Source of the DNA: a virus
Virus record (IMG/VR): IMGVR_UViG_3300028415_000034
Span: 1-20,425 of that record
Length of the DNA: 20,425 nucleotides
Strand: one strand, 5' to 3'
Positions 3,493 to 19,275 of the stretch are shown here, piece by piece; positions within the stretch are counted from its first letter, which is position 1; every line of letters begins with the position of its first letter. The position numbers and the translations under genes were made by a program. The notes beneath the pieces were generated by a model. That model was not told the DNA's origin. It saw only the letters and a list, made by a program, of their open reading frames with translations, and did not search any database.

Positions 3493-4056
3493 TTAGCTCC
3501 CTATTGGACTTTTTGTGTTTGCGCTATCAGAGATGTCTTCTGATTCTCCTACAGGTGCTCCCGCAGTCGGTTCATGATCACGCTCTTTACGAGCACTCTC
3601 AAGTTCTTTCAGTAGATCCATAACTCTGTTACCACCTGCACTTTCCTGGGCGCTTTCGCTGGCCATTTCTTCTGTGTCAAGTAGTGCTTCGTACGGTTCG
3701 TTTTCGTCTATTACGCCTTCTTGGTATCTTTCTAAAGGCTCGTCTGCTCTGCGTACTACAAAACAAGATTCGTGTACTGAGCATGCGTGTGCTAAGTAGC
3801 CTGCTAGTACTTGTGATGTTGTTGGGTATGTTAAATCTGCTTCAAAATACGTCACTTCGGTATTCTGTTTCTGAGGAAAGTCTAGCGGGCGTTCCTGAAT
3901 AGGAGTTTTTTTTCCTGCTGTAAGTTTGTCGACGCCAAACTTCTTCAAAGCAGTTTCCATGTGTGTTGTAAATTCTTCAGGCAGTTCGCCGGCTACACCT
4001 ATCTTAAAAGTGTAGACTTTTTTAGATTCGTTTAAAATGTCTGTAAAAGATCTCAT
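3493..4056 (-). CDS. Conserved phage protein of unknown function, between gp16 and gp17
   Basis: 187 residues, beginning MRSFTDILNESKKVYTFKIG. The first 110 residues look like a compact alpha/beta domain, with a stretch (KKTPIQERPLDFPQ, then EVTYFEADLTYPTTSQVL) that I remember as conserved in marine T4-like phages without known function. The C-terminal part (about 115-187) is acidic and low-complexity and ends TKSPIGS. ATG 4056 is preceded by AGGA at a good SD distance and, further upstream, by a late promoter that overlaps the end of gp16. No signal peptide or membrane segment is seen. Confidence 0.87.
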   Translation of the reverse strand: MRSFTDILNESKKVYTFKIGVAGELPEEFTTHMETALKKFGVDKLTAGKKTPIQERPLDFPQKQNTEVTYFEADLTYPTTSQVLAGYLAHACSVHESCFVVRRADEPLERYQEGVIDENEPYEALLDTEEMASESAQESAGGNRVMDLLKELESARKERDHEPTAGAPVGESEDISDSANTKSPIGS

Positions 4057-10711: not shown

Positions 10712-10743
10712 GGACATCACTTAAAATACCCTTGTTATATGCG

Positions 10744-11118
10744 GTGAAAAGGGGGAGAAAAGGTGCTAAATATAAACCTATGCGTCCTTTATGTAAAATC
10801 TGCAGAAGAAAACCGTGTGCACTAAATTATTATAAGAACAACAAGGCTTATTATAGGACAAGGTGCGAAAGTTGCTCAAACGACAAAAAGAAAGCAAGGA
10901 GTCCGAGGTGGTTTTATAGAGGGTATACGAAGAAAGATTTTTGTGAGAAGTGCGGGTTTAAGAGTAAACACTGTGAACAGTTTGATGTTTATCATGTGGA
11001 CGGCGACTTAGAAAACTGCCGTCCGAATAACTTAAAGACTATATGCGCTAACTGCCAGCGTATCCTGCAGAAGACAGGCTCTAAGTGGCGACAGGGCGAC
11101 TTAACGCCTGATTATTAA
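10744..11118 (+). CDS. HNH-like zinc-binding protein
   Basis: 124 residues from GTG 10744. Cys pairs that would bind zinc: CKIC, CESC, CEKC and CANC. The end of the protein has an HNH-like core, YHVDGDLENCRPNNLKTICA, with His, then Asn residues; the usual last His is replaced by the CANC pair. It is predicted to bind DNA and possibly nick it, though loss of the last His leaves activity uncertain. I remember similar proteins in marine T4-like phages with a basic RGRK-KYKP N-terminus, which is why a start upstream of ATG 10780 is preferred; TTG 10732 is also possible, and none of the three has a good SD. It lies on the opposite strand to its neighbours and ends tail to tail with the kinase gene, sharing the bases TTAA (11115-11118). 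Confidence 0.75.
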   Translation: MKRGRKGAKYKPMRPLCKICRRKPCALNYYKNNKAYYRTRCESCSNDKKKARSPRWFYRGYTKKDFCEKCGFKSKHCEQFDVYHVDGDLENCRPNNLKTICANCQRILQKTGSKWRQGDLTPDY

Positions 11119-11660
11119 CGAGCTAAGACCTCTAATGCATCGTAACCTAAGTGCGTTACAAGTATGTTATCGATTAGGTCTGTAGTGTTGCGTTTAGTTT
11201 CCTCTAGCAGTCCGTTATTGTCAATTACAAAATCAGCCATCCAAGGCTCAAGCGACATGCTGGTCTTGTCTTCTGGCGGCAAGTGATCGCTTCTGTCAAC
11301 CCAAATTACGTAGTCAAATACACCTTGGTTCTTCATACTGTGGAATTCACGCTTGTGACGCAGACCACAATAGATATCGTTTTCAACATACAGTTCCTTG
11401 CCAAGTCGAGCAGGGTCATTACTGTTATAATCAGCAATCATGTTATACCAAAGTTCTCTATGATTAACTCTGTCAGCTAAACATTCTTCTACAGTTTGGT
11501 AGTTAAATCGAACTCTAAGTTCGTCGAAGATAAAATGTCGAGCAGCAAAATGACTGCTGGATTCGTATTCAAAGTTGTATTTGTTGACAATATACTCACA
11601 GACAGTGTCCTTGCCGTGTCGAGCGTGTCCTATTATCATCAGTTTGGGTGGGATTGTCAT
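11115..11660 (-). CDS. Deoxynucleoside monophosphate kinase-like P-loop protein (T4 gp1-like)
   Basis: 181 residues. P-loop GHARHGKDT (11-19) at the N-terminus fits the GxxxxGKDT loop of the T4 gp1 and phage dNMP kinase group. A later stretch, GVFDYVIWVDRSDHLPPEDK, fits the lid or base-binding part of such kinases, followed by FVIDNNGLLEET. The role would be phosphorylating dNMPs for phage DNA synthesis in the cytoplasm. ATG 11660 has an SD (GGAG, 6-nt spacing). Unlike its neighbours it has a strong sigma70-type promoter, so it is probably expressed early. Exact substrate cannot be read from sequence; general adenylate-kinase-like activity is the alternative. Confidence 0.8.
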   Translation of the reverse strand: MTIPPKLMIIGHARHGKDTVCEYIVNKYNFEYESSSHFAARHFIFDELRVRFNYQTVEECLADRVNHRELWYNMIADYNSNDPARLGKELYVENDIYCGLRHKREFHSMKNQGVFDYVIWVDRSDHLPPEDKTSMSLEPWMADFVIDNNGLLEETKRNTTDLIDNILVTHLGYDALEVLAR

Positions 11661-12529: not shown

Positions 12530-12537
12530 GATAAATA
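12530..12537 (+). promoter_or_regulatory. T4-type late promoter of gp14 (divergent pair, right-facing)
   Basis: The plus strand reads GATAAATA followed by TG. The predicted start is near 12543, which excludes the ATG at 12537 and supports ATG 12561 as the gp14 start, with SD AAAGG in an 18-nt leader. Confidence 0.75.
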
Positions 12538-12560
12538 TGTTTACAATAAAGGTAAAGCTG

Positions 12561-13820
12561 ATGCCAAGACTAAGTTTATACAAACCAACCCGTGGAAATG
12601 ATTATTATTTCTTAGACAAAACAATTTTAGAATCCTTCACAGTGGGCGGAACAGATGTCCTAGTGCACAAGTATCTAGGAACCGACGACGGCGAAGTTGT
12701 CAAAGACAATACTCAAATACAAGACCTGCTGTTTCTAGAAAACAGAGACAGGAAGTACGACAACGACATATACAGAATTCGGGGTGTGTACAGTGTACAA
12801 GATTTAGACTTTGATCTGTCACAATTTGGGTTGTTCCTTAGTAACGATACAATCTTTATGACCATTCATATTACTAGTTCAGTGAAAACTATCGGGCGTA
12901 AAATTATGAGCGGAGACGTAATCGAGTTACCACACCTTGAAGACGAATACGCTGCTAACGATTTTCAGACTGCGCTAAAGCGGTTTTATGTAGTAGAAGA
13001 CGTTAACCGTGCTGCCGAAGGCTTTACACCTACTTGGTATCCACATTTGTACAGACTCAAGCTCAAGCAGCTCACAGACACACAAGAGTTCAGCGATATA
13101 CTTAACAAGCCAGAAGATGAGGACTTGTTCGAAGGCGAATACGACGAAACTATCACATATCAAGTAGGTCAAGTTGTGCGTTATGAAGGCGTACTATACG
13201 AAGTAATAGTCGAAACCACAGGTAATCTTCCAACAGATACTGACTTTTGGAAGGAGTATCAAGACAATACACTAAGAGACTTGTTGAGTACATACGAACG
13301 TGAAATGCAAATTAATGCAGGCACTCTTGCAGAAGCTGATGCAGATGCAAAGCAAAGTGGCTATGACGTTTCGCACCTTTATACTGTTGCTCTTAACCAC
13401 GACGGTAGTGTAGAACTACAAACTGTAGACGAGTCTGATATTGATGCAAGTGCATTTACAGCAACCGCAGACGGAATTTACGGTAAGCCCGACAGACTAG
13501 GATACACAGGTTATTTGATTACAGATTCACAAGCACCTAACGGCGAAGCATTTGGAATGGGCATTCAATTTCCTGAAGATAACGTTGAAGGCGATTACTT
13601 CTTAAGAACAGATTTTATTCCTAATAGAATGTTCCAGTTTACTGGAGACAGATGGAAGAAGATGTATGACGATGTTAGAATGACTATGACAAACGGCAGT
13701 GATAGACTTACACAGAAAGGCACGTTTGTTAACAACGATAATACAACAACAGTAGCAGGTGAAACATTCCCAGAGAAGCAGAGTCTGTCTAAAGCTCTTA
13801 AACCCAAGGCTGACAATTAA
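12561..13820 (+). CDS. 14: Neck protein (gp14) with an extra beta-rich insert
   Basis: 419 residues from ATG 12561 (T4 gp14 is 256). The start is typical, MPRLSLYKPTRGNDYYFLD, followed by VGGTDVLVHKYLG, IQDLLFLENRDRKYD, VYSVQDLDFDLSQFGLFL, GRKIMSGDVIELPHLEDEY and RFYVVEDVNRAAEGFTPTWY. This is the pattern of marine T4-like gp14 as I recall it. Residues 192-233 form an inserted module (ETITYQVGQVVRYEGVLYEV, then LPTDTDFWKEY) similar to small carbohydrate-binding modules of the CBM5/12 type. The in-frame ATG 12537 lies in the promoter core and is rejected; AAAGG supports 12561. It is the first gene of a rightward operon with the NUMOD3-like protein, gp15 and probably Nudix. Confidence 0.87.
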   Translation: MPRLSLYKPTRGNDYYFLDKTILESFTVGGTDVLVHKYLGTDDGEVVKDNTQIQDLLFLENRDRKYDNDIYRIRGVYSVQDLDFDLSQFGLFLSNDTIFMTIHITSSVKTIGRKIMSGDVIELPHLEDEYAANDFQTALKRFYVVEDVNRAAEGFTPTWYPHLYRLKLKQLTDTQEFSDILNKPEDEDLFEGEYDETITYQVGQVVRYEGVLYEVIVETTGNLPTDTDFWKEYQDNTLRDLLSTYEREMQINAGTLAEADADAKQSGYDVSHLYTVALNHDGSVELQTVDESDIDASAFTATADGIYGKPDRLGYTGYLITDSQAPNGEAFGMGIQFPEDNVEGDYFLRTDFIPNRMFQFTGDRWKKMYDDVRMTMTNGSDRLTQKGTFVNNDNTTTVAGETFPEKQSLSKALKPKADN

Positions 13821-14017: not shown

Positions 14018-15478
14018 TTGGACTTTTTTTATGATAAACAGATACGACGATATCTTACTCAAACAATTCGACTATTGAGTAACTTTTCGCATCAAGACGC
14101 AAACGGTAACCTCAAACAGGTTCCTGTAATGTACGGTGATCTAACACGACAGGTTGCAAACATTATTAGAGATAATTCTGAGAATAAAATCCCCAGTGCA
14201 CCGAGGATGGCTGTTTACATTACTGGTCTCGAACAGGACAGGACACGAACTGCTGACCAATCATTAGTTAGCAAAGTGAACGTTAGAGAACGAGCTTATG
14301 ACGACCTTAATAACGAATATCTAAACACACAAGGGCAGAACTATACAGTTGAGCGTCTAATGCCTAGTCCGTATACTCTACGAATTAGTGCAGACATTTG
14401 GGCTTCTAATACTGACCAGAAGTTGCAAATTCTTGAACAGATCTTAGCATTGTTTAATCCAAGTTTTGAAATTCAAACAACAGATAATTACATTGACTGG
14501 ACTAGTTTGACAGTTGTTAATCTTGAAGGTATTGTGTTTAGTTCAAAATCTATCCCGGTTGGCGTAGACAGCGAGATTGATGTTGCTCAGCTTACATTTA
14601 GTATTCCTATCTACTTGTCTAGCCCTGTTAAGGTCAAGAAGCTAGGTGTTGTACAAAAGATTATCAACAGTATTTACGACGAAGCAAACGGTACTGTTGA
14701 ACTAGGACTTAGTGGTCCGGAGTTAGCAGCGTGGGCAGACACTGCTCCACCTGTTAATACTACCGGTAGCATACAAGATAACCTAGAAGGCAACGAAACT
14801 AACACCACTGCTAACATTACTAGGAATAATAGGTCAGTGGTTACTACAACCTGGCAGGACTACGGACTGTTTGTGAACGGCAACCAAGCCCAAATTGTTG
14901 ACGGCCAAAGCGTTGGAACAATTAATTGGCAGGCATTATTTCAAGCATATCCAGGACGGTACCAAGCAGGCTCAAGCAGAATCTTTTTACAGTCGTCTGA
15001 AACTAACAACTACATTGTAGGTACAATTGCGTTAGATGATATGGACTCGACTATTGTTAATATTACTTGGGACGGTGATACAATTCCTGAAGATACTATT
15101 ATCCAAGGAAGAACGAACTTAGATTACATTATTGATCCAACTAGGTTCAACCCATCAAGTGTCAAGACGCCAGGTGCACGACTATTGCTTTTAGCTGACA
15201 TTGGTAATACAGATAATGTCGACGGTGCAGATGCTTGGAAAAATCAAGACGGTACTGACTTTGTTGCTAGTGAAAATGATATAGTTGAATGGAACTTAAA
15301 TTCTAACTCAAGTCTTTATGAATGGCGTATCGTGTTTGATGCCAGCGAAGAGACTAATGTTGTTTACACTTCGAATCTAAACACAGGGTATCAATACAAG
15401 TGGACAGGCGATTACTGGATCAAGAGTTGGGAAGGCGAATATTCAAGTAGTGCTTGGAGCTTAGACCTTCTAAGCTAA
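14018..15478 (+). CDS. 15: Tail completion / sheath stabiliser protein (gp15) with C-terminal extension
   Basis: 486 residues (T4 gp15 is 272). In T4, gp15 caps the tail top and joins tail to neck. The N-terminal part, about 1-235, has the gp15 pattern: MDFFYDKQIRRYLTQTIRLL, QVPVMYGDLTRQVANII, PRMAVYITGLEQDRTRTADQ, VERLMPSPYTLRISADIWAS, QKLQILEQILALFNPSFEI, then FSIPIYLSSPVKVKKLGVVQ. Residues about 236-486 are an extra domain of unknown function, beta-rich, with many Asn, Thr and Asp. TTG 14018 is taken as the start because GAGGTG lies 7-8 nt upstream, the next in-frame ATG is far inside the conserved region, and other gp15 proteins begin just before the same FFY-IRRY motif. Confidence 0.85.
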   Translation: MDFFYDKQIRRYLTQTIRLLSNFSHQDANGNLKQVPVMYGDLTRQVANIIRDNSENKIPSAPRMAVYITGLEQDRTRTADQSLVSKVNVRERAYDDLNNEYLNTQGQNYTVERLMPSPYTLRISADIWASNTDQKLQILEQILALFNPSFEIQTTDNYIDWTSLTVVNLEGIVFSSKSIPVGVDSEIDVAQLTFSIPIYLSSPVKVKKLGVVQKIINSIYDEANGTVELGLSGPELAAWADTAPPVNTTGSIQDNLEGNETNTTANITRNNRSVVTTTWQDYGLFVNGNQAQIVDGQSVGTINWQALFQAYPGRYQAGSSRIFLQSSETNNYIVGTIALDDMDSTIVNITWDGDTIPEDTIIQGRTNLDYIIDPTRFNPSSVKTPGARLLLLADIGNTDNVDGADAWKNQDGTDFVASENDIVEWNLNSNSSLYEWRIVFDASEETNVVYTSNLNTGYQYKWTGDYWIKSWEGEYSSSAWSLDLLS

Positions 15479-15486
15479 CTATTAGT

Positions 15487-15948
15487 ATGGACCAAATAGT
15501 TTGCAGTGGTGCACTGTTTTATGCACTAGACACACATAGATTCCTATTCATTCACCGGACCCAAGGTCGTCACAAAGATCACTGGGGGCTAGTTGGTGGC
15601 ACTACTGAAGGAATCGAAACTCCTTGGGAAGGTCTACAGAGAGAAATACAGGAAGAAATAGGCAAAGTTGAGATTTTAAAGACAATGCCGCTTGAAAGTT
15701 TTGTCTCTAACGATCAGCATTTTCACTTTCACACTTATCTAACTTTGGTTACTGAAGAGTTTATTCCTAAGCTAAATCACGAACACAATGGATACGCTTG
15801 GGTCAGCTTTGGCAAGTGGCCAAAGCCTGTTCATCATGGATTGCGTAATACTTTACAAAATAAGACAATTCAAAGTAAACTTCAAACTGTCTTACAAGTT
15901 ATTGACTGGATGGATCTCAGTTCCAAAACGGGTCAAACTGATAGCTAA
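15487..15948 (+). CDS. Nudix hydrolase
   Basis: 153 residues. A complete Nudix box lies at 38-59 of the protein: G38, five residues, E44, seven residues, R52-E53, two residues, E56-E57, one residue, G59. These acidic residues bind the metal used to hydrolyse nucleoside diphosphate-linked compounds. The N-terminus (MDQIVCSGALFYALDTHRFL) and C-terminal half (NHEHNGYAWVSFGKWPKPVH) match Nudix proteins I remember from marine T4-like phages. The substrate cannot be read from the sequence. ATG 15487 follows the gp15 stop by 8 nt and has no clear SD; the in-frame TTG 15454 lies inside gp15. The last 32 bp overlap the end of the opposing PagL-like gene. Confidence 0.92.
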   Translation: MDQIVCSGALFYALDTHRFLFIHRTQGRHKDHWGLVGGTTEGIETPWEGLQREIQEEIGKVEILKTMPLESFVSNDQHFHFHTYLTLVTEEFIPKLNHEHNGYAWVSFGKWPKPVHHGLRNTLQNKTIQSKLQTVLQVIDWMDLSSKTGQTDS

Positions 15949-16414
15949 CAGTAACATAGTCTATGCCTGTGTTAACTTCGTGAATACTTGCAGAACTATG
16001 ATGTGACCATTCAAGACGCCAAACTTTATTGAAGTCGACTCCTAGACCTAATCGAAAGTTTGTCGGACCAACTAGATTACTTCCGCTATTAGCACTTACG
16101 CCTAAACGAAAATACGGTTCTACTCCTTTGTAGCCCCATAATGGTTCTGTAACGTAAGACACAGAATAGATCTCCAAGTTATCTTCTTGTACACCATTTT
16201 TAGTATCACCTTGCTTCATAATCAGAGCCTGAACTTCCCAATTGTTATACACAAAGCCAACTTCGCCTACTCTTAGTGTAGAATTTATTAGTGTTGAGCC
16301 TAGACCAATATTAAACATTCCGTGATCGTCTGCATTTGATTTAGCAGAATAACCTGCTGCTAAAAGCAAGATTACAAATAAGATAACTCCTGCTACTGTT
16401 TTGTTAAATTTCAT
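15917..16414 (-). CDS. PagL-like outer-membrane beta-barrel (putative lipid A 3-O-deacylase)
   Basis: 165 residues. N-terminal signal peptide: basic MKFNK, hydrophobic VAGVILFVILLLAAG, likely cleavage after SNA (26-28). The rest alternates hydrophobic and polar residues with many aromatics, as in small outer-membrane barrels. Near the C-terminus SHHSSASIHEVNTGIDY contains His138-x-Ser140, with Asp152 twelve residues after the Ser. This is the spacing of His126, Ser128 and Glu140 in Pseudomonas PagL, with Asp in place of Glu. The function would be removal of an acyl chain from lipid A in the outer membrane. The SD AAGGTGA precedes ATG 16414, 8 nt after the stop of the fibre gene, so it should be expressed late with it. 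Confidence 0.78.
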   Translation of the reverse strand: MKFNKTVAGVILFVILLLAAGYSAKSNADDHGMFNIGLGSTLINSTLRVGEVGFVYNNWEVQALIMKQGDTKNGVQEDNLEIYSVSYVTEPLWGYKGVEPYFRLGVSANSGSNLVGPTNFRLGLGVDFNKVWRLEWSHHSSASIHEVNTGIDYVTVSYQFDPFWN

Positions 16415-16422
16415 ACGTCACC

Positions 16423-19275
16423 TTATAAGTTCGCTATACGAGTCTGGAAGTCTGTGAAGTCTGCAGAAGCTGCTGTTACGTCTTTAAGAGTTTGAAGACT
16501 TACGTAGCCTGGTATAGTATTGTTGATACCATCTACAAGAATTGTACTATCGTCACCAAATACCGATCCTGACATCTCACCTTCCAATGTGCCTACTACA
16601 TTACCTTGCACATTACCAAAGAACGTGCCTGTGGCCGTAATGTCGCCTGCTGTGATAGCATTAGTTGTTGTACTGCCGTTGCCGGTAACGTAATCAAGAG
16701 TAAAGTCAGTTGCTGCCTGCGTGCCTACTGTTGCTGCGTTGCCGCCGTCAACAGAAACAGTTAGTGTAGCATTGCCTAGATCTGTAAACGTTGCAGAACC
16801 AGTTGCGTCACCGTCTAAGGTCAGCGTCGGGTCACTTGCTGCTGTTGTTGCAATGTCAACGTTGCCTGTACCGTCTACTGACACGCTACCAGTAACTGCT
16901 CCAGAGACGCTAATAGTTCTTGCTGTAGCCCACGCCGCTGCTGTGTCTGCATTACCTGTTAGTGCACCAACAAACGTAGTTGCTTCAACGTTTTTGTCGA
17001 ATACAAAACGGTCGGTTGCAGAAGCGTATGCCAGTGTAGCTGTGCCATCTGTGCCTAAGTCTACAACAATACCTGCACCATTAGCTGCCGTTGCGTCTGC
17101 TACGCCGTCTGCAAGAATAAGTGTGGTTGACGTTGTAGTCAGCGAAGCCGAGTTAATGTTTGTGTTACCGTTAACAGTTAGATCGCCTGTGATGGTTGCA
17201 TTGCCACCTACGTAAAGGTTCTGTGCAATACCTGCACCGCCGTCAGTAATGATTGCACCTGTGTCTACAGAAGTTGACTGAGTTGTGTCGGTTTGAGTAA
17301 TTACACCAGTTACGTCAACAAGCCCACCTACGTAAAGGTTCTGTGCAATACCTGCACCGCCGTCAGTAATGATTGCACCTGTGTCTACAGAAGTTGACTG
17401 AGTTGTGTCGGTTTGAGTAATTACACCAGTTACGTCTAGTGTACCGGCTAGATTTAGTGAAGTACTCCAAGCTGGCGCGGAGCCATTACTTGTTAGTACT
17501 GTATTTGCTGCGCCTATAGTCAGTGGCCCTAAGCTGTCTGCTCCGTTGCCAATCAGAATGTCACCTTGGGTGGCTGTATCAAGACCAGTACCGCCGCTGG
17601 TCACTGGAAGTGCAGACGTTAACGACATTGTGTCTGATGTTACGTCACTAGCAACTACGTTACCTCTAAATGTAGTAGCTTGAATGTCACCTTGTGTGCC
17701 TGATGCTACTTCTGTTGTAATCGTTGCATCAGGTACAAATGTGAAGTAACCGGTTGAATCATCAAAGCCAAAGAAGCCGTTCTTTGCAGTAGATCCGTCG
17801 TGCCATTTAAAGTTTATACCACGGTCTTGATTGTCATCGCCAGTTGGTGCTGAACCACTGTTTCCTGTACCAATTGATACAATTCTGTCAGTTGTGTTAA
17901 CTGGCCCGTTAAAAACAGTATTGCTGCCGTTAATAACACTAAAGTTGCCGTCTACAATTATACCGCCTTCGAACGTGCCGCCTGTGCTTTTTGCAACAAC
18001 ATCACCAACTCTAAAGACACCTAACACTATAACATTAACATCAGTATCAAAGTCTACAGGATCAACTAGTGTTAATGAAGTAGCGTCAGTGGTATACTCT
18101 TCACCTTCTTCAAGAACAATACCATTTCTGATTACAATTTCTGTGCCGCCTGAAACGGTACTAAATGTATTACCATTGTCGTCAATGCCTGAGAATACTT
18201 GCTGTCCTGAATCAGCAGTAAACTGATATCTAACCAGTGCACTTCCTAAAGGCAGAACTGCCCAGTCGTCAATGCCCGGCGTTGCGTTATATACTTCGTA
18301 GCTGTTGTTTGTAGTGTTCCAGCGAATAGCACCTGTTGTATCTGCTGGTCTTTCTGCGGAAGTACCAATCGGAAGTACCAACGACTTGTTTGTGTTCATA
18401 ACAACGTTGCCAGTACCCGTTGGGGTAATGCTAATACTAGTGTTGGCTATTGTAGTAGTAATATCGTTAGATGACAATAGTAAGTCGCCCAAGTATCCGT
18501 TGTCTGAATAAGCATTAAGCCAAGTCTGCGACGATGTACCAAGGTCGTATGTTCCGGTTGAGTTCGGAACAAGATTTGATTCAAATTCTGCACCAATTGT
18601 GATACCGTCTGTGGTTTCGTCACCAATTGTAATATTACCATCGACTCTTAGGTTACCGGTAACGATAAGATTCTTAATATTACCAGTTGTACCAATCTGC
18701 GTAGCACTATTGGTTATAACTGAACCGCTTGTTCCTGCTTGTAATTCTAAATTTTGACCGGCCAAGGTAGACTCTATCAGTCCTGAGCCTGCTGTTATAG
18801 CTGGATCGCCGTTAATTGATATTGTACCGTATGATAGTTTTGTATCTGTGTTTGCTGCGTCGTTGATTGTCAGCCTGCCGTTAATGATAACACTGCTATC
18901 AGTATTAGTATCGATAAGAATATCGGAACCATCTGCGGCTGTAGTTGTAGTAACTTGGTTCTGGGTGAAAAGTAAATCGTTAGCTTCGACACCTGCTGCG
19001 GCATCAAAACCAGTTAGCCTAAGGTTACTAGATAGTACTGTAATGTCGTTTCCGTTAATGTCAACATTGTCTACAGTTGCTTGATCTGCTAATAGTAAAG
19101 TTGTTTGAGTGGTGCCGGTAACATCTAGGTCAACGCCTGGTGTTCCGTTGTTTACGCCTATGCGGCTATTGGTAACATCAAAGTACAGGAGATCTGTTTC
19201 TACTGCTATGTCTATGCCATTTCTTACTAGGTTCGCCTTGAGTAGCGGACCCGATATACGACCTGTTGCAGCCAT
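16423..19275 (-). CDS. Large fibre-like virion structural protein with tandem repeat
   Basis: 950 residues, rich in Thr, Gly, Asp, Asn, Val and Ala, built from repeated beta-type segments, as expected of a tail fibre or long virion surface protein. The N-terminus (MAATGRISGPLLKANLVRNG, then ETDLLYFDVTNSRIGVNNGT) is of a type I remember from marine T4-like phages. About residues 295-335 carry an AERPA-containing module (GTSAERPADTTGAIRWNT), and 343-430 a beta module with IVIRNGIVLEEGEEYT; both also occur in the neighbouring 187-residue protein. Residues about 613-690 hold two 40-residue copies of a repeat (QSTSVDTGAIITDGGAGIAQ). No C-terminal S74 peptidase is seen. ATG 19275 has a strong SD (AAGGAGAG). 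Confidence 0.88.
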   Translation of the reverse strand: MAATGRISGPLLKANLVRNGIDIAVETDLLYFDVTNSRIGVNNGTPGVDLDVTGTTQTTLLLADQATVDNVDINGNDITVLSSNLRLTGFDAAAGVEANDLLFTQNQVTTTTAADGSDILIDTNTDSSVIINGRLTINDAANTDTKLSYGTISINGDPAITAGSGLIESTLAGQNLELQAGTSGSVITNSATQIGTTGNIKNLIVTGNLRVDGNITIGDETTDGITIGAEFESNLVPNSTGTYDLGTSSQTWLNAYSDNGYLGDLLLSSNDITTTIANTSISITPTGTGNVVMNTNKSLVLPIGTSAERPADTTGAIRWNTTNNSYEVYNATPGIDDWAVLPLGSALVRYQFTADSGQQVFSGIDDNGNTFSTVSGGTEIVIRNGIVLEEGEEYTTDATSLTLVDPVDFDTDVNVIVLGVFRVGDVVAKSTGGTFEGGIIVDGNFSVINGSNTVFNGPVNTTDRIVSIGTGNSGSAPTGDDNQDRGINFKWHDGSTAKNGFFGFDDSTGYFTFVPDATITTEVASGTQGDIQATTFRGNVVASDVTSDTMSLTSALPVTSGGTGLDTATQGDILIGNGADSLGPLTIGAANTVLTSNGSAPAWSTSLNLAGTLDVTGVITQTDTTQSTSVDTGAIITDGGAGIAQNLYVGGLVDVTGVITQTDTTQSTSVDTGAIITDGGAGIAQNLYVGGNATITGDLTVNGNTNINSASLTTTSTTLILADGVADATAANGAGIVVDLGTDGTATLAYASATDRFVFDKNVEATTFVGALTGNADTAAAWATARTISVSGAVTGSVSVDGTGNVDIATTAASDPTLTLDGDATGSATFTDLGNATLTVSVDGGNAATVGTQAATDFTLDYVTGNGSTTTNAITAGDITATGTFFGNVQGNVVGTLEGEMSGSVFGDDSTILVDGINNTIPGYVSLQTLKDVTAASADFTDFQTRIANL
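17204..17436. repeat. Perfect 113-bp direct tandem repeat, period 120 bp, inside the fibre gene
   Basis: Copies at 17204-17316 and 17324-17436 look identical base for base, separated by 7 bp. The period of exactly 120 bp keeps the frame and encodes two 40-residue units of the fibre protein. Identity at synonymous positions implies a recent duplication, gene conversion, or an assembly effect. Confidence 0.95.

What the first reader, a model, noticed from the sequence alone, without database searches (positions are those of the whole stretch)
15917..16414. Phage-encoded PagL-like lipid A deacylase candidate in the fibre operon
A signal peptide plus the His-x-Ser and acidic residue spacing of PagL suggests an enzyme that changes lipid A. 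Expressed with a fibre gene, it could alter the host surface late in infection, blocking superinfection or stopping progeny from binding debris, or it could weaken the outer membrane for lysis. Asp replaces the usual Glu, so activity is uncertain.
Basis: partly seen in the sequence, partly recalled or inferred. Interest (0 to 1): 0.75.

Follow-up and report, generated by a model that had tools for sequence, protein, structure and literature searches.

The report
Phage-borne PagL-like lipid A deacylase
A T4-like jumbo phage, and many unrelated phages from metagenomes, carry a small outer-membrane enzyme gene of the PagL family that probably clips a fatty acid off the host's lipopolysaccharide; it was slotted in right behind the phage's (putative) fibre gene, which suggests phages use it to remodel the cell surface late in infection.

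Summary
Window 15917-16414 (-) encodes a 165-aa protein with a signal peptide and the exact His-x-Ser-(11)-acid spacing of PagL (H138, S140, D152 against H126, S128, E140). Pfam PagL matches above its curated cut-off (E 8e-6). A profile of the phage family finds one PDB chain, PagL 2erv (weakly, E 0.044), with all three residues aligned. AlphaFold predicts a signal helix plus an eight-strand barrel (pLDDT 80) whose best PDB match is 2erv.

At least 28 IMG/VR contigs carry the gene. The family is one phage-only clade under purifying selection; H, S and D never vary. Asp for Glu is not a defect: 12 of 70 bacterial PagL relatives have it.

The gene is a moron (inserted cargo). Close relatives of this phage have an empty site, with the NUDIX and structural-gene stops about 15 bp apart. 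In other phages it sits behind tail fibres, fibre-assembly genes or diversity-generating retroelements, often before lysis genes.

Most likely it is a late-expressed lipid A deacylase that remodels the infected cell's surface. Deacylation itself, and the benefit to the phage (less re-adsorption, or easier lysis), are inferred. Lipid A deacylases in prophages are known (LpxR), so this is a new variant of a known kind.

The parts
15917..16414 (-). PagL-like outer-membrane lipid A deacylase gene, 165 aa
   Evidence: Pfam PF09411 above cut-off; AlphaFold barrel with PagL 2erv as top fold match; 28 related viral loci
16331..16414 (-). signal peptide, residues 1-28 (cleavage A28/D29 proposed)
   Evidence: hydrophobic helix 5-25 in the model; conserved A28 followed by D or E in nearly all relatives
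16001..16003 (-). codon of H138, aligned to PagL H126
   Evidence: 23 of 23 distinct phage proteins; 70 of 70 bacterial relatives
15995..15997 (-). codon of S140, aligned to the PagL nucleophile S128
   Evidence: 23 of 23 distinct phage proteins; 70 of 70 bacterial relatives
15959..15961 (-). codon of D152, aligned to PagL E140
   Evidence: 22 of 22 phage proteins complete there; bacterial relatives E 31, N 22, D 12, other 5
16418..16425 (-). Shine-Dalgarno-like TAAGGTGA overlapping the stop of the upstream structural gene (probable translational coupling)
   Evidence: sequence read directly
16423..19275 (-). 950-aa repetitive structural protein, putative fibre, upstream in the same direction
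   Evidence: PHROG structural / head decoration matches; orthologue directly abuts the NUDIX gene in PagL-less relatives
15454..15948 (+). NUDIX hydrolase, convergent, overlapping the 3' end of the PagL gene by 32 bp; left border of the insertion
   Evidence: Pfam NUDIX 1.9e-15; present next to the structural gene in L304-L308 without PagL
14018..15478 (+). T4 gp15-like tail sheath stabiliser, marks the locus as T4-like
   Evidence: Pfam PF16724 1.3e-22

Best explanation
The gene is a moron (inserted cargo gene) that encodes a PagL-family outer-membrane enzyme. Made with the late structural proteins, it is exported by its signal peptide, folds as an eight-strand barrel in the outer membrane, and uses a His-Ser-Asp triad to hydrolyse an ester-linked acyl chain of host lipid A. 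The result is an infected cell, and later its debris, with remodelled lipopolysaccharide. This most likely lowers adsorption of rival phages and of the phage's own progeny to the dying cell or its fragments, which would explain why the gene travels with receptor-binding modules. Shown by sequence: family, triad, predicted fold, insertion behind the structural gene, conservation. Inferred: late expression, deacylase activity, lipid A as the substrate, and the anti-adsorption benefit.
For: Pfam PagL above cut-off in this protein and in 14 of 15 related phage records. The family profile's only PDB match is 2erv, at E 0.044, with the triad aligned. AlphaFold barrel with 2erv as best solved-structure match, E 1.4e-5, ahead of OmpA, Ail and OmpX. 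hhalign 95-97% against bacterial PagL, reversed control under 8%. H138, S140 and D152 invariant while H139 is not. Purifying selection, median dN/dS 0.13. Insertion shown by empty sites in L304-L308. Behind fibres, DUF4376 or other fibre-associated genes, or diversity-generating retroelements in most other phages. Published work shows the aligned His and Ser are essential in Salmonella PagL (PMC4958258).
Against: Sequence similarity to PagL is concentrated in the C-terminal half (Pfam covers residues 81-160). TM-score to 2erv is only 0.54-0.60. Triad distances were not measured. PagL Asn129 is Ser here, a position that is Asn in 61 of 70 bacterial relatives. No expression or lipid A data exist. 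A fibre neighbour does not prove a receptor-related role: the slot behind fibre genes may simply tolerate insertions, and lysis genes are also near in many loci.
Confidence: 0.6

Rival explanations
1. The enzyme is a PagL-type deacylase whose benefit is lysis: late deacylation loosens or bends the outer membrane (as PagL does when it drives vesicle formation), helping spanins and endolysin release progeny.
For: Holin, endolysin, amidase or Rz/Rz1 genes lie downstream in many loci (L006, L009, L012, L014, L019). PagL activity raises outer membrane vesicle formation in Salmonella (PMC4958258).
Against: In the window, and in L004, L018, L020 and L021, no lysis gene was recognised beside it; a baseplate gene follows in L021. 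Fibre-then-lysis order is ordinary in late operons, so proximity may be incidental.
Confidence: 0.2
2. It is a non-enzymatic outer-membrane barrel, like Lom/OmpX/Ail-type proteins, that blocks receptors or decorates the surface; the PagL resemblance is inherited but catalysis is lost or irrelevant.
For: Many phages encode small outer-membrane barrels of unknown function. Asn129 is replaced by Ser.
Against: His, Ser and Asp are strictly kept under purifying selection while the adjacent His varies. PagL outranks OmpX and Ail in fold search.
Confidence: 0.12
3. It is an active serine esterase of the PagL fold whose substrate is another outer-membrane lipid, for example outer-leaflet phospholipid, or a non-standard lipid A of the unknown host.
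For: The phage clade lies on a long stem branch. The host is unknown. The N-terminal half, with part of the presumed acyl groove, is weakly similar to PagL.
Against: All characterised members of the family that I know of act on lipid A 3-O-acyl chains (established knowledge).
Confidence: 0.08

Closest known systems
PagL, lipid A 3-O-deacylase (Pfam PF09411; P. aeruginosa structure 2erv; Salmonella PagL)
   Same: Eight-strand outer-membrane barrel, signal peptide, His-x-Ser-(11)-acid catalytic set, C-terminal N-x-G-[IL]-acid motif
   Different: This branch was found only in phages; Asp instead of Glu; Ser instead of Asn after the catalytic Ser; little sequence similarity in the N-terminal half; activity untested
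Classical PagL carried by Pseudomonas lambda-like prophages (found here, L221-L300)
   Same: Lipid A deacylase family gene carried as phage cargo
   Different: Recent capture from Pseudomonas pagL (75-79% identity), lies behind NinG and an adjacent unidentified gene, Glu-type triad; a separate origin in the tree
LpxR of E. coli prophages (near antiterminator Q, PMC13192938)
   Same: Outer-membrane lipid A deacylase carried by phages
   Different: Unrelated 12-strand, Ca-dependent enzyme that removes the 3'-acyloxyacyl group
Phage outer-membrane barrels such as lambda Lom (OmpX/Ail type)
   Same: Small barrel placed in the host outer membrane
   Different: No His-Ser-acid set; different family (fold search)

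Membership tests
PagL lipid A 3-O-deacylase | Match to the curated family model | tested here: met
   26.5 bits against cut-off 23; 14 of 15 relatives pass. NCBIfam and PHROGs have no match
PagL lipid A 3-O-deacylase | Catalytic His and Ser in H-x-S | tested here: met
   H138, S140 invariant in 23 phage and 70 bacterial proteins
PagL lipid A 3-O-deacylase | Acidic third residue 12 after the Ser | tested here: met
   D152, same spacing as E140; Asp in 12 of 70 bacterial relatives
PagL lipid A 3-O-deacylase | Eight-strand outer-membrane barrel | tested here: met
   AlphaFold, eight barrel strands, pLDDT 80.4; best PDB match 2erv
PagL lipid A 3-O-deacylase | Sec signal peptide | tested here: met
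   By inspection: hydrophobic helix 5-25 and conserved A28/D29; no dedicated predictor was available
PagL lipid A 3-O-deacylase | Triad clustered in three dimensions | tested here: inconclusive
PagL lipid A 3-O-deacylase | Removes the 3-O acyl chain of lipid A | not testable with these tools
   Needs expression and mass spectrometry
LpxR lipid A 3'-O-deacylase | Match to LpxR family, 12-strand barrel | tested here: not met
   No LpxR match in Pfam at E up to 10; eight barrel strands predicted
OmpX/Ail/Lom barrel | Closest by sequence or fold | tested here: not met
   PagL ranks above Ail and OmpX in fold search; no OmpX/Ail match in Pfam

The most novel reading that the evidence does not exclude
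Phages have their own long-standing branch of lipid A deacylases that moves as a cassette with receptor-binding modules, including fibres diversified by retroelements, so that a phage can both choose a receptor and later disable adsorption to that surface by rewriting lipid A: an enzymatic, lipid-level form of superinfection exclusion and progeny release in lytic phages.
Probability: 0.35. Interest if true: 0.8.

Novelty: new variant of a known kind. Interest (0 to 1): 0.6.

Why it matters
Phages are known to change O-antigen and core sugars; altering lipid A, the membrane anchor of lipopolysaccharide, is barely discussed for lytic phages. If active, this family would add an outer-membrane enzyme to the late-infection toolkit, offer a testable link between receptor choice and surface remodelling, and show that lipid A deacylases have been taken up by phages more than once (this clade, Pseudomonas prophage PagL, E. 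coli prophage LpxR).

Tried and rejected
No relative in 50,697 isolated phage genomes, none by pattern scan in species-representative genomes, and none at E<=1e-6 in 369 genomes of the gammaproteobacterial class, so host assignment by shared gene failed. IMG sample numbers were not found in any paper, so the habitat is unnamed. A T4-type late promoter TATAAATA occurs only at chance level and not upstream of this gene. A folded leader upstream of the start was tested and is not special. Prior reports of a phage-encoded PagL were sought in the paper library; none seen in the search results or the papers opened. PHROGs has no family for this protein. The original PagL structure paper is not held. 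The idea that the second His (H139) is catalytic was rejected because one relative (L209) has Asp there.

Full report
WHAT IS THERE. The reported span is an intact ORF, 15917-16414 on the minus strand, 165 aa. It begins 8 nt after the stop of a 950-aa repetitive structural gene (16423-19275, same strand), and TAAGGTGA overlaps that stop, so translational coupling is likely. Its 3' end overlaps by 32 bp a convergent NUDIX gene (15454-15948 +), which follows a T4 gp15-like sheath stabiliser. The window is a 20.4-kb virus record. Its terminase is nearest to jumbo T4-like Pseudomonas phages of the PA5oct group (55% identity), and the order terminase to sheath matches PA5oct, which itself has no PagL. 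The 950-aa protein matches PHROG structural and head-decoration families, so 'fibre' is a reasonable but unproven name here.

IS IT PagL-LIKE. Pfam PagL scores 26.5 bits against a curated 23 (E 8e-6). The same family is found in 15 of 15 related phage records, 14 above the cut-off, and not in PA5oct. A profile of seven phage sequences searched against all PDB sequences up to E 10 returned one chain, 2erv, P. aeruginosa PagL; the score alone is weak (E 0.044) but the catalytic residues align exactly. AlphaFold with 16 related sequences gives a signal helix and an eight-strand barrel, pLDDT 80.4. Foldseek ranks 2erv first (E 1.4e-5), then OmpA, NspA, Ail and OmpX. TM-scores are modest (0.54-0.60), partly because the query includes the signal helix and the loops are uncertain. 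Profile-profile comparison with two sets of bacterial PagL gives 95-97% probability; the column-reversed control gives 7% and 0.6%.

THE TRIAD. H138-x-S140 and D152 match H126, S128 and E140 in spacing. In 23 distinct phage proteins H138 and S140 never vary, and D152 is present in all 22 that reach that far; the neighbouring H139 is Asp in one. To test whether Asp is unusual I drew PagL-family proteins from 398 Pseudomonadota genomes (113 carry one) and aligned 70: His 70/70, Ser 70/70, acid position Glu 31, Asn 22, Asp 12, other 5. Asp is therefore a natural variant. Published mutagenesis shows that His and Ser are essential in Salmonella PagL (PMC4958258). In the model H138 and S140 are in strand 7 and D152 in strand 8, opposed across the hairpin as in PagL; distances could not be measured.

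FAMILY AND SELECTION. Scans of IMG/VR give 28 contigs with the gene from one alignment query, and a few more from other queries. None was found in isolated phage records or by pattern scan in species-representative genomes. Locus G+C runs from 36 to 61% and the gene G+C broadly follows it, so carriers probably infect different hosts. The median pairwise dN/dS is 0.13. In a tree with bacterial PagL the phage proteins form one group (100/100) on a long stem; the exact attachment point is unsure because long branches meet.

AN INSERTED CARGO GENE. Relatives of this phage found through the sheath stabiliser show the empty site. In L304-L307 (stabiliser 88% identical, NUDIX 85%, structural protein 73-80%) the NUDIX and structural-gene stops lie about 15 bp apart with no PagL; L308 is similar, with a short hairpin between them. 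In ten records tested, including several of these relatives and more distant ones, the gene is not found elsewhere either, though most are fragments. So the PagL gene was gained, or lost by relatives, as a single-gene unit at the end of the structural gene.

CONTEXT IN OTHER PHAGES. Gene order differs but the position recurs: after a tail fibre and a DUF4376 or other fibre-associated gene (L005-L013, L021, L208, L211, L216), or after a diversity-generating retroelement with its fibre (L004, L022, L023). In L004 and L023 the template-to-variable differences are only at adenines, 13 of 13 and 21 of 21, which confirms the retroelement signature. L017 is an exception: the nearest fibre-like gene lies downstream. 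Downstream genes are often holin, endolysin, amidase or Rz/Rz1. The fibre-side link is the more constant one.

HOW IT PROBABLY WORKS. Shown: family, triad, predicted fold, conservation, insertion. Inferred: it is made late, exported, and removes an acyl chain from lipid A. I rate family membership about 0.93, esterase activity on lipid A about 0.7, and the anti-adsorption purpose about 0.45. The lysis-aid purpose is a serious rival, because PagL activity is known to drive outer membrane vesicle formation (PMC4958258) and lysis genes are nearby in many carriers.

WHAT IS KNOWN. LpxR, an unrelated lipid A deacylase, is a regular neighbour of antiterminator Q in E. coli prophages (PMC13192938). 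I also found classical PagL in 116 viral contigs; those examined look like Pseudomonas lambda-like prophages, several with the gene behind NinG, a separate origin in the tree. No paper seen in the held library describes a phage-encoded PagL; absence from this library is weak evidence. The finding is a new variant of a known kind: a phage-only PagL branch used as cargo by lytic and other phages.

Noticed in passing
L004:2551-4445 and L023:3199-4670: Diversity-generating retroelements beside the PagL gene: variable repeat at the 3' end of the fibre gene, template repeat, (in L004) Avd, and reverse transcriptase; all 13 and 21 differences are at template adenines.
   Followed up: partly
L221-L300 (for example L227:4329-6231): Classical pagL (75-79% identical to P. 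aeruginosa) sits in Pseudomonas lambda-like prophages, in L227 behind NinG; 116 viral contigs matched. Possible lysogenic conversion gene.
   Followed up: partly
L016:5497-5733, L019:5480-5725, L022:4197-4421, L196:6493-6735, L208:1147-1377: A conserved 74-81 aa single-membrane-span protein directly follows or overlaps the PagL gene in several phages; no Pfam or PHROG match for the copy tested. It may be a partner; it is absent from the window.
   Followed up: no
window 10732-11118 (+): HNH endonuclease ORF on the opposite strand between the sheath gene and the 181-aa ORF at 11115-11660 (PHROG 9.7e-10); looks like a homing insertion.
   Followed up: no
window 12537-13820 (+): Virion structural protein with a carbohydrate-binding module 5/12-like stretch just under the Pfam cut-off (25.3 against 26.2).
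   Followed up: no
L308 about 3830-3870: The empty site contains a perfect hairpin between the two convergent stops, likely a two-way terminator that the PagL-bearing window lacks at this spot.
   Followed up: no
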